From an uncultured Roseovarius sp. (GTDB lineage: Bacteria; Pseudomonadota; Alphaproteobacteria; Rhodobacterales; Rhodobacteraceae): a stretch of 64,000 bases of DNA. Location: contig NZ_CAJXNN010000019.1 in the NCBI RefSeq assembly GCF_913057115.1, forward strand, positions 1 through 64,000, in the 5' to 3' direction. The first letter of the stretch is position 1. The number at the start of each line of letters is the position of its first letter. A program made the translations under genes and the position numbers. The notes below the pieces were generated by a model. That model saw nothing but the letters and a program-made list of their open reading frames with translations, ran no database searches and was not told the origin of the DNA. Below, piece by piece: positions 29,686-32,119 of the stretch.

Positions 29686-29754
29686 AGGGCAATTGCGTCG
29701 CAAGGTGAAAGAATCCTTGCGTGCGCCTGCGGCCTGCGACAGAGTTTTCTTATC

Positions 29755-29935
29755 AAGGTGCTGCACACCGGTCATTCGGGGTGCGGAGAATTGGGAAGCC
29801 GGTGAGAGACCGGCGCTGCCCCCGCAACGGTAAGGATGGGGGCAAGGGCATCAAGCCACTGGACCGCCGCCATGGTCCGGGAAGGCGCCCTTGCCAGACC
29901 CGCCAAGCCCGGAAACCAGCCTTGTGTCACGTCAA
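29755..29935 (+). ncRNA. Cobalamin (B12) riboswitch
   Basis: GGTGCTGCACACCGG...GGGAAGCCGGTGAGAGACCGGCGCTGCCCCCGCAACGGTAAGG...GCCACTGG...CCGGGAAGGCGCCCTTGCCAGACCCGCCAAGCCCGGAAACC: B12-box core and flanking conserved segments. Confidence 0.9.
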
Positions 29936-30034
29936 GCCGCGGGGGGCGGTGCGGGCGCGTGTCATGGACCGCTTCCCTTAACATCCCCTCGCCCCAGACC
30001 GGCCCGGGGTGTGGCCGGGGGAAGAGAAGTAGAA

Positions 30035-30364: not shown

Positions 30365-31444
30365 CTAAGCCATTCCGCCTTGCACGAGCCTATCGGCCAG
30401 TTGGGCGTAGGCCTGAGCCATGGGGCTGTCGCCTGCGGCAATTGGTGTACCGGCATCCCCGGCCAGCCGGGTGTCGAGGTCGATGGGCAGGGCACCGAGA
30501 AAGGGGATGCCCAGTTTGTCGGATTCCGCCTGAACCCCGCCATGGCCGAAGATATGCGCCTCGTGTCCGCATTCGGGGCAGTGGAAGGTGGACATATTCT
30601 CGATCAGCCCGAGTACCGGGGTTTTCAGGGTGTTGAACATGTCCATCGCCTTGCGCGCATCCAGAAGCGCCACGTCTTGTGGCGTGGAGACCACCAGCGC
30701 GCCGGTGGGAGCGGATTTCTGGCATAGGGTCAATTGCACATCGCCGGTGCCGGGAGGCAGGTCGACGATCAGGACGTCCAATTCGCCCCAGTTCACCTGC
30801 GTCATCATCTGTTGCAGCGCCCCCATGAGCATGGGGCCGCGCCAGACCACGGCCTTGTCGGGGTCCAGCATCAGGCCGATGGACATCAGCGTGACGCCAT
30901 GGGCGTGCAGCGGTTCTATGATCTTGCCATCGGGGCTGGCCGGGCGCTGATTGACGCCCATCATGCGAGGTTGACTGGGGCCATAGATATCGGCATCCAG
31001 CAGGCCCACGCGGCGGCCTTGCTTGGCCAGCGCCACGGCGAGGTTCGAGGACACCGTGGATTTGCCGACGCCGCCCTTGCCCGAGGCCACGGCGAGAATC
31101 GAGCGGACCCCGGCAGGGCGCACCGGTTCGTTGCCGCCCTTGGGGTGGCCGCCGATCTTGAGGCTGGGGGCCTCTTTTTGGGGGGGCTGTTTGCCGCCGT
31201 CATGCGCCGTCAACGCCACGCTGGCGTGATCCACCCCCGGCACCGAGAGGGCGGCGCGTTCGGCGGCGGCGCGCAGCGGCTCCATTTGCTGCGCCATGGC
31301 GGGCGAGGGCGCCTCGATGACGAATCGGGCGGTTGCTCCCTCGATCGACAGGGCGCGCACCATGTCGCGCGAGACCAGATCGCCGCCGTCTGGCAGCTCC
31401 AGTTTTTTCAGTTCATCGAGAATCGCGTCGCGTGTCGCTGCCAT
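30365..31444 (-). CDS. Mrp/NBP35 (ApbC) family Fe-S carrier ATPase
   Basis: ILAVASGKGGVGKSTVSSNLAVALAKQGRRVGLLDADIYGPSQPRMMG; DVLIVDLPPGTGDVQLTLCQ; FHCPECGHEAHIFGHGG. Confidence 0.95.
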   Translation of the reverse strand: MAATRDAILDELKKLELPDGGDLVSRDMVRALSIEGATARFVIEAPSPAMAQQMEPLRAAAERAALSVPGVDHASVALTAHDGGKQPPQKEAPSLKIGGHPKGGNEPVRPAGVRSILAVASGKGGVGKSTVSSNLAVALAKQGRRVGLLDADIYGPSQPRMMGVNQRPASPDGKIIEPLHAHGVTLMSIGLMLDPDKAVVWRGPMLMGALQQMMTQVNWGELDVLIVDLPPGTGDVQLTLCQKSAPTGALVVSTPQDVALLDARKAMDMFNTLKTPVLGLIENMSTFHCPECGHEAHIFGHGGVQAESDKLGIPFLGALPIDLDTRLAGDAGTPIAAGDSPMAQAYAQLADRLVQGGMA

Positions 31445-31681
31445 TTTTGCCACCCCCTTCATCGCTTTGCCGCAATAGGTGGCAGCTTTGACACGGAGGG
31501 CAAGGGGGTGCGTAAAGATTGATGAAAAATTCACCTTATTGCTTAACGTTAGGTCAGCAATGCGTATGCATTTGCTGCATGGCAGCATTGAGAATTCGGG
31601 GATTGTGCAAGTGCAGCATTGGGTTATCTTTGGATCAACAAACGAAACGCGACGCACTTCGGTGCAAATGAGAATAAGACA

Positions 31682-31903
31682 ATGACCTTCGCACATGACA
31701 CCCGGGCCTCGAACGCGGCCCTCGCCCTCGAGATCAGCGCCGCTGTAAGCCAGTTCTTCCAGCGTATCGACGATTACCGCCTGTACCGCAAGACGCTGCA
31801 GACGCTTCGCGATCTGGATGACCGGACCTTGGCGGATCTTGGCCTGCACCGGTCGGGCCTGCGGGCGGAAGCGTTGAAAGCCACCTACGGCATCATGCGC
31901 TAA
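31682..31903 (+). CDS. DUF1127-domain small protein (CcaF1-like by context)
   Basis: 73 aa ending YRLYRKTLQTLRDLDDRTLADLGLHRSGLRAEALKATYG, a DUF1127 motif; followed by the CCTCCTCCC hairpin array. Confidence 0.88.
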   Translation: MTFAHDTRASNAALALEISAAVSQFFQRIDDYRLYRKTLQTLRDLDDRTLADLGLHRSGLRAEALKATYGIMR

Positions 31904-31916
31904 GGAAATTCGGAAT

Positions 31917-32119
31917 CGAATGTCTCTCTCCTCCTCCCTGAGGCATTCGTGAATGGCGGCGGCGCTCTCTCCTCCTCCCTGAGGGCCGCCGCCCAAAATA
32001 CCCCGGACCATCTTGAGGTCCGGACAAGATGAACGGCTGATCCTCTCCTCCTCCCTGGATCGGACGTGAAAAGAACGGCGGTGCTCTCCTCCTCCTCCCT
32101 GAGCGCCGCCGTTTTTTTG
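31917..32119 (+). ncRNA. Tandem array of four 'cuckoo'/CcsR-like anti-SD hairpin sRNAs
   Basis: Hairpins 31917-31949, 31955-31993, 32037-32063 and 32074-32113, each with CCTCCTCCC in the loop (31930, 31971, 32047, 32091); the last is a 13 bp stem followed by a T run to 32119. Confidence 0.85.

What the first reader, a model, noticed from the sequence alone, without database searches (positions are those of the whole stretch)
31682..32119. DUF1127 gene followed by four tandem CCTCCTCCC-loop hairpins (cuckoo/CcsR-like sRNA array)
Directly visible: right after a DUF1127 ORF, four hairpins each carry CCTCCTCCC (31930-31938, 31971-31979, 32047-32055, 32091-32099) in the loop, while the stems have unrelated sequences (CGAATG/CATTCG; GGCGGCGGC/GCCGCCGCC; CTGATCC/GGATCGG; AACGGCGGTGCTC/GAGCGCCGCCGTT). 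Stems vary while the pyrimidine loop is constant, and the last hairpin ends in a T run, so it doubles as a terminator. Established: Rhodobacter sphaeroides CcsR1-4 sRNAs carry CCUCCUCCC loops and are co-transcribed with a DUF1127 gene (ccaF1) under RpoH control; related 'cuckoo' RNAs occur in other alphaproteobacteria. Inference: this is the orthologous stress operon, processed into several anti-SD-like sRNAs. A further CCGGACC/GGTCCGG hairpin (32003-32023) lies between copies 2 and 3.
Basis: partly seen in the sequence, partly recalled or inferred. Interest (0 to 1): 0.85.

Follow-up and report, generated by a model that had tools for sequence, protein, structure and literature searches.

The report
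DUF1127–CcsR stress-RNA operon with PhaR-type operators
This is this bacterium's version of a known operon that makes a small protein plus regulatory RNAs able to cover ribosome-binding sites, and its promoter across the family carries the operator used to control the carbon-storage polymer PHB, a link I did not find described.

Summary
A DUF1127 gene (31682-31903) is followed by four hairpins with CCTCCTCCC loops and a T-run terminator. Simulated windows never give such a cluster, and stems covary among relatives while loops stay fixed.

The natural unit is a pair of hairpins, so the window holds two CcsR modules (A+B, C+D), not four, separated by a non-aSD spacer hairpin M (32003-32023). The (pair-M)n-pair layout recurs across Rhodobacteraceae. 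The nearest studied case is the Rhodobacter sphaeroides ccaF1-CcsR operon; the mrp-DUF1127-array order is shared with genomes matching the CcsR model above its cut-off. Both window matches fall below that cut-off.

The new point is the promoter. In 123 promoters a palindrome CTGCATRGCAG lies 23-24 bp before a TTG -35 element embedded in TTGTGCANNYGCAGCA. CTGCN3GCAG is the published R. sphaeroides PhaR operator. In 20 relatives it lies upstream of phaP in 18 of 18 usable loci. It is eroded in the two complete phaR-less genomes that keep the operon. The operon therefore probably belongs to the PHB regulon. This is inference; no binding or expression was tested.

The parts
30365..31444 (-). mrp/apbC-like ATPase gene, divergent neighbour; conserved synteny with the DUF1127-array locus
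   Evidence: 359-aa ORF on the - strand; tblastn finds it in 83 of 127 DUF1127-linked array loci
31573..31587 (.). Palindromic operator TGCTGCATGGCAGCA (CTGCN3GCAG), matches the published PhaR consensus
   Evidence: conserved in 87 of 97 Rhodobacteraceae arrays at <=1 mismatch; the same site type lies upstream of phaP, phaC/phaZ and phaR; consensus from PMC12542648
31603..31618 (+). Second box TTGTGCAAGTGCAGCA; its TTG is the predicted -35 element; the same box type occurs at PHA promoters of relatives
   Evidence: 93 of 97 arrays; exactly 23-24 bp from the palindrome centre in 123 promoters; found before phaR in L270 and in the phaC-phaZ gap of L287
31625..31630 (+). Predicted -10 element TATCTT (T at -9); start of transcription about 31639 (inferred)
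   Evidence: column conservation of 123 aligned promoters; RpoHI rules from PMC3441632
31682..31903 (+). DUF1127 protein, 73 aa, CcaF1-like
   Evidence: PF06568 E 5e-9, 36.2 bits against cut-off 23.3; alignment with relatives
31917..31949 (+). Hairpin A, CCTCCTCCC loop at 31930-31938
   Evidence: fold; 7 of 10 pairs with compensatory change
31955..31993 (+). Hairpin B, CCTCCTCCC loop at 31971-31979
   Evidence: fold; 5 of 9 pairs with compensatory change
32003..32023 (+). Spacer hairpin M without a CCTCC loop, between the two modules
   Evidence: fold; a non-aSD hairpin lies between aSD hairpins in 99 of 126 folded arrays
32033..32066 (+). Hairpin C, CCTCCTCCC loop at 32047-32055
   Evidence: fold; 3 of 5 pairs with compensatory change
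32071..32119 (+). Hairpin D, CCTCCTCCC loop at 32091-32099, followed by T7: intrinsic terminator
   Evidence: fold; terminator stem and T run conserved in all 17 aligned loci
31913..31997 (+). CcsR module 1 (A+B), RF02791 match 34.7 bits (cut-off 65.3)
32028..32117 (+). CcsR module 2 (C+D), RF02791 match 35.2 bits (cut-off 65.3)

Best explanation
A single transcript starting near 31639 carries a CcaF1-like DUF1127 gene and a 3' UTR of two CcsR-type modules (hairpin pairs A+B and C+D) with a spacer hairpin M between them, ending at a terminator that is itself hairpin D. By analogy with R. sphaeroides, RNase E cuts the transcript into an mRNA and sRNAs of about 85-90 nt, helped by the DUF1127 protein. 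Each sRNA presents CUCCUCCUCCCU loops that pair with purine-rich Shine-Dalgarno sequences (complement AGGGAGGAGGAG), so translation of catabolic, transport and redox mRNAs is lowered under stress. Transcription uses a heat-shock-sigma (RpoH) type promoter flanked by two PhaR-type sites: a palindrome centred near -60 and an N4-spaced variant over the -35 element. PhaR probably represses the operon until PHB granules draw PhaR away, as for phasin genes, so that carbon storage gates the RNA response. Shown here: anatomy, covariation, linkage, operator identity and conservation, and erosion of the operators where phaR is absent. Inferred: processing, pairing with targets, RpoH use, PhaR binding and its sign.
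For: Array and structure. Modules and relatives: RF02791 and RF02344 matches, only this locus in the own genome, RF02791 matches in 245 of 298 family genomes, even motif counts 95 against 32 odd, (pair-M)n layout. Orthology: mrp synteny. Promoter: composite footprint in 77 of 150 family genomes with 0 control matches; all 30 fetched footprint loci have an array downstream and 26 a detected DUF1127; fixed 23-24 bp spacing. PhaR: published operator CTGCNNNGCAG (PMC12542648); own phaP and phaC/phaZ promoters carry it, the latter with the identical 13-mer TGCTGCATGGCAG, and a CTGCAGCGCAG lies at the phaR start; in 20 relatives it is upstream of phaP 18/18, phaZ 10/17, phaC 9/17, phaR 5/20 against 0.01 expected per 260 nt; both boxes eroded in the two complete phaR-less genomes with arrays, against neither box detected in 1 of 97 others. 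Targets: 20 GGGAGGAG-N-ATG sites against 4 reversed, 15 before ORFs of 160 aa or more, including PrrA/RegA, an E1 dehydrogenase, an FDH-like oxidoreductase, acyl-CoA enzymes and TRAP binding proteins. Published function of R. sphaeroides CcsR1-4: PMC8625941, PMC8307010, PMC10253847.
Against: Both window matches are far below Rfam's curated cut-off. The same Rfam search rings weakly in one control genome. The phaR-loss test rests on two genomes. Footprints persist in three phaR-negative assemblies that are 71-89% complete, where phaR may simply be missing from the assembly. At -37 the promoters have A, not the C over-represented in RpoHI promoters. The target list has no control for strong Shine-Dalgarno sequences in general. 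No expression or binding data are available for this organism.
Confidence: 0.8

Rival explanations
1. The operon is a CcsR/cuckoo locus, but the two TGC-rich boxes are bound by a regulator other than PhaR, or are only promoter sequence.
For: CTGCN3GCAG is short; other factors could read it; 9 of 14 TGCTGCNNNGCAG hits in the own genome are at neither PHA genes nor this operon.
Against: The same extended site lies upstream of phaP in all 18 usable loci and is rare elsewhere. The box-2 type recurs at the phaR start in L270 and in the phaC-phaZ gap of L287. Both boxes are eroded where phaR is absent.
Confidence: 0.22
2. The hairpins act in cis, as a stabiliser, attenuator or storage site for the DUF1127 protein on its own mRNA, and not as free sRNAs.
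For: They lie in the 3' UTR; autoregulation between CcaF1 and the precursor is reported in R. sphaeroides (PMC8307010).
Against: A cis role does not explain an invariant 9-nt loop with freely changing stems, nor amplification up to 14-17 motifs. In R. sphaeroides mature CcsRs are seen and regulate flhR in trans.
Confidence: 0.12
3. A rhizobial-type ar14/NfeR1 sRNA locus that only happens to lie behind DUF1127.
For: RF02344 scores as high as RF02791 here (41.9 and 40.9 bits).
Against: Both are below cut-off (58.8). The linkage to DUF1127 and mrp is conserved across the family, and many of the arrays without a detected DUF1127 are rhizobial.
Confidence: 0.04
4. Chance G+C-rich hairpins or a mobile repeat.
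For: G+C-rich genome.
Against: Simulations, covariation and fixed synteny.
Confidence: 0.01

Closest known systems
ccaF1-CcsR1-4 operon of Rhodobacter sphaeroides (RSP_6037; RF02791), called CIN1 locus / cuckoo RNAs
   Same: DUF1127 gene followed by CCUCCUCCC-loop hairpin pairs, end terminator, mrp next door in CcsR-like loci, TTG/T-9 promoter type
   Different: Two modules here; a high-scoring relative (L033) has seven; the window DUF1127 is 73 aa (CcaF1 71 aa); model scores 35 against a 65.3 cut-off; PhaR-type operators not described in the papers I could read
ar14 family / NfeR1 of Sinorhizobium meliloti (RF02344)
   Same: Variable stems with constant anti-SD loops that silence transport mRNAs
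   Different: Three-hairpin RNA from its own sigma-70 promoter; rhizobial arrays here lack the Rhodobacteraceae footprint
PhaR regulon of R. sphaeroides, Paracoccus and S. meliloti
   Same: Operator CTGCN3GCAG, in one or two copies upstream of phasin genes
   Different: Known targets there are PHA, exopolysaccharide and metabolic genes; no DUF1127-sRNA operon was found among them in the papers searched

Membership tests
cuckoo / CcsR-type locus (CIN1) | CCUCCUCCC in hairpin loops, stems variable but paired | tested here: met
cuckoo / CcsR-type locus (CIN1) | Short DUF1127 gene directly upstream, same strand | tested here: met
cuckoo / CcsR-type locus (CIN1) | Rho-independent terminator at the 3' end | tested here: met
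   hairpin D plus T7, conserved
ccaF1-CcsR operon of R. sphaeroides (orthology) | Same genomic neighbourhood as loci matching the CcsR1 model above cut-off | tested here: met
   mrp adjacent in L033-L042 and in the window
ccaF1-CcsR operon of R. sphaeroides (orthology) | RpoHI/RpoHII promoter | tested here: inconclusive
   TTG -36 to -34 and T at -9 present (rules), but A not C at -37 and no expression data
ccaF1-CcsR operon of R. sphaeroides (orthology) | RNase E processing into discrete CcsR RNAs with CcaF1 help | not testable with these tools
   needs RNA
Rfam RF02791 (CcsR1) in the strict sense | Score at or above the curated cut-off of 65.3 bits | tested here: not met
   34.7 and 35.2 bits; only 10 of the 245 family genomes with matches pass it
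Rfam RF02344 (ar14) | Score at or above the curated cut-off of 58.8 bits | tested here: not met
   41.9 and 40.9 bits
PhaR regulon | CTGCN3GCAG operator in the promoter | tested here: met
   31575-31585
PhaR regulon | phaR in the genome, with the same operator at its canonical targets | tested here: met
   phaR 99.3 bits; own phaP, phaC/phaZ and phaR start
PhaR regulon | PhaR binding and PHB-dependent expression | not testable with these tools
   needs protein and cells

The most novel reading that the evidence does not exclude
Across Rhodobacteraceae the DUF1127-CcsR operon is a member of the PhaR (PHB-sensing) regulon, with paired PhaR-type sites fixed on the promoter, so carbon storage gates a stress-type anti-SD RNA response.
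Probability: 0.7. Interest if true: 0.65.

Novelty: new member of a known kind. Interest (0 to 1): 0.48.

Why it matters
The operon itself is known biology, but three things become testable: the unit of the array is a hairpin pair set off by spacer hairpin M; the promoter has a family-wide composite operator that points to PhaR; and the loops match ribosome-binding sites of acyl-CoA, C1-type, sulfur and TRAP-uptake genes and of PrrA/RegA. If PhaR controls the operon, PHB status, stress sigma factors and post-transcriptional control of central carbon metabolism are joined in one promoter. That would fit the reported effect of CcsRs on C1 metabolism and pyruvate dehydrogenase.

Tried and rejected
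Reading the array as four CcsRs: rejected, since the RF02791 matches and the even motif counts show pairs. Chance or low-complexity origin: rejected. ar14 membership: below cut-off and wrong context. A PhaR-loss test by presence of arrays alone: too weak, because phaR-less genomes are few and mostly small or incomplete; replaced by looking at the boxes in phaR-less loci. MFE folds that extend past 32118 disturb hairpin C; this is an artefact of sequence beyond the terminator. Non-alphaproteobacterial hits of the three-motif pattern (Streptomyces, Lachnospiraceae and others) have no DUF1127 upstream and were set aside as chance or low-complexity matches. The key CcsR, CcaF1 and cuckoo papers (PMC4402390, PMC8034643, PMC4615179) and a R. 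sphaeroides phaR paper (PMC9238381) are not held, so statements about them come from later papers that cite them.

Full report
The four CCTCCTCCC copies lie where stated, are the only ones in the window, and form a cluster that simulated windows do not produce. The ORF at 31682-31903 is a DUF1127 protein of 73 aa. The RNA from the stop codon to 32118 folds into five hairpins, A, B, M, C and D, with the motif in the loop of all but M. In 17 aligned sequences (the window and relatives of its genus) the loops are nearly invariant while stems change on both sides: 17 of 41 pairs have compensatory changes, and 95.9% of cells pair, against 36-50% when partners are slid by 1-3 columns. Hairpin M is too variable and short in that alignment to show covariation.

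The unit is a hairpin pair. The Rfam CcsR1 model, which spans two hairpins, matches twice, at 31913-31997 and 32028-32117. In arrays linked to DUF1127 the number of motifs is even in 95 and odd in 32 (P about 1e-8 by a sign test, ignoring relatedness). Loci that match the model well above its cut-off (L033-L037) read pair-M-pair-M-pair, with up to seven pairs. Folding 126 arrays gives (aaM)n-aa patterns most often, with a non-aSD hairpin between aSD hairpins in 99. The window is the minimal aa-M-aa form. Its role as a spacer or processing site is my inference.

Orthology and spread. The window's divergent neighbour is mrp/apbC. It is found with 83 of 127 DUF1127-linked arrays, including L033-L042. 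RF02791 finds matches in 245 of 298 genomes of the family, but only 10 pass the curated cut-off, so the model is narrow; one control genome rings weakly. In the window's own genome this is the only such locus. A three-motif pattern in named genomes returns mainly Rhodobacterales and Rhizobiales. I therefore file the locus with the DUF1127-CcsR (CIN1/cuckoo) loci, as a likely orthologue of ccaF1-CcsR, while noting that it fails the Rfam cut-off for RF02791 in the strict sense.

Published behaviour of the R. sphaeroides operon: RpoHI/RpoHII promoter, co-transcription, RNase E processing with the CcaF1 protein, effects on flhR, C1 metabolism and pyruvate dehydrogenase (PMC10253847, PMC8625941, PMC8307010). 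For NfeR1 the three aSD loops act redundantly and silence transport mRNAs (PMC7143759). None of this was tested in the present organism.

The promoter is the new part. Upstream regions share a long footprint in Rhodobacteraceae that rhizobial loci lack. A strict form, CTGCATRGCNGNAWTG-N9..24-TTGTGCA, occurs in 77 of 150 family genomes, once in nearly all of them (G107 has two), and the reversed control occurs in none. All 30 loci fetched have an aSD array downstream, and 26 a detected DUF1127 ORF. In 123 distinct promoters the palindrome centre is 23 or 24 bp from the TTG, with no other spacing. Counting that TTG as -36 to -34, position -9 is T in 86%, as needed for RpoHI (PMC3441632). The palindrome centre then lies near -60, and the second box covers the -35 element.

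Who binds it? The R. sphaeroides PhaR binding sequence is given as CTGCNNNGCAG (PMC12542648). In the own genome TGCTGCNNNGCAG returns 14 hits (two of them the two readings of this palindrome; reversed control 6). Among them are the phaP promoter and the phaC-phaZ divergent gap, the latter with the identical TGCTGCATGGCAG. A CTGCAGCGCAG also lies at the start of phaR. In 20 relatives, CTGCN3GCAG lies within 260 nt upstream of phaP in 18 of 18, of phaZ in 10 of 17 and of phaC in 9 of 17 (these two often share one site), and of phaR in 5 of 20; the background is 0.01 per 260 nt. The flanks at these sites, TATGCTGC-NNN-GCAGCATA, are those of the DUF1127 promoter. The second box type, TTGTGC-N4-GCAGCA, is itself found just before phaR in L270 and in the phaC-phaZ gap of L287, there as ATTGTGCAGTTGCAGCATT, which matches the DUF1127 consensus.

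A loss test. phaR (PF07879) is present in 288 of 298 family genomes. Five phaR-negative genomes keep the array. The two that are 100% complete, G210 and G062, keep DUF1127 and the array. Both operators have decayed there: CTGCNNNGCAG to GCGCATGGCGG and ACGCATAGCGG, TTGTGCANNYGCAGCA to TTGTGCCGGACGGCGG and TTGTGGCGGCCCGCAA. Three assemblies of 71-89% completeness keep the palindrome exactly or nearly, and phaR may lie in their missing parts. Among 97 other Rhodobacteraceae arrays only one lacks both boxes at one mismatch. This agrees with PhaR but rests on two genomes. The sign of control is inferred. Box 2 over the -35 element suggests repression, as for phasins.

Targets. The sequence GGGAGGAG followed by ATG at 3-11 nt occurs 20 times in the own genome, against 4 for the reversed pattern. 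Fifteen sites precede ORFs of at least 160 aa (two of these sites point at the same reading frame region in the FCSD cluster). They encode two acyl-CoA dehydrogenases, two acyl-CoA synthetases, three TRAP binding proteins, a PQQ-system ABC binding protein, a molybdenum-hydroxylase FeS subunit, an FDH-like oxidoreductase, a flavocytochrome c sulfide dehydrogenase, a thioredoxin, PrrA/RegA and an E1 dehydrogenase. These fit the published themes, but I had no control for strong ribosome-binding sites in general, so this is a list of candidates.

Verdict. The finding is real and the interpretation sound, with the module count corrected. As an operon it is a new member of a known kind. The composite PhaR-type promoter is, as far as the searched literature shows, not described for this operon, and is the reason for a middling rather than low interest score.

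Noticed in passing
window 29739-29938 (+): Strong cobalamin riboswitch (RF00174, 115 bits) downstream of an EamA-type transporter gene; its regulated gene was not identified.
   Followed up: no
window 31543-31556: TTAACGTTAGGTCA block upstream of the palindrome is conserved in part of the relatives (TAGGTCAG in 23 of 121 upstream regions); possibly the promoter of the divergent mrp gene.
   Followed up: no
L182 (own genome C47:20065-20080, - strand): The only other exact TTGTGCANNYGCAGCA site of the own genome lies upstream of an unidentified acyl-CoA-type gene (possibly a MaoC-like dehydratase, no family search run); a candidate further PhaR target.
   Followed up: partly
L019: The block M-C-D is duplicated in tandem (A-B-M-C-D-M-C-D), a recent copy event that shows how arrays grow by pair plus spacer.
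   Followed up: partly
L008, hairpin M: In this close relative the spacer hairpin's loop reads CACCTCCCGG, a partial anti-SD motif; spacer and regulatory hairpins may interconvert.
   Followed up: no
G107 (C7 and C12): One family genome carries two copies of the composite promoter footprint, perhaps two DUF1127-array operons.
   Followed up: no
L263 (own genome C36:20160): The PrrA/RegA redox regulator gene has a ribosome-binding site exactly complementary to the CcsR loop.
   Followed up: partly
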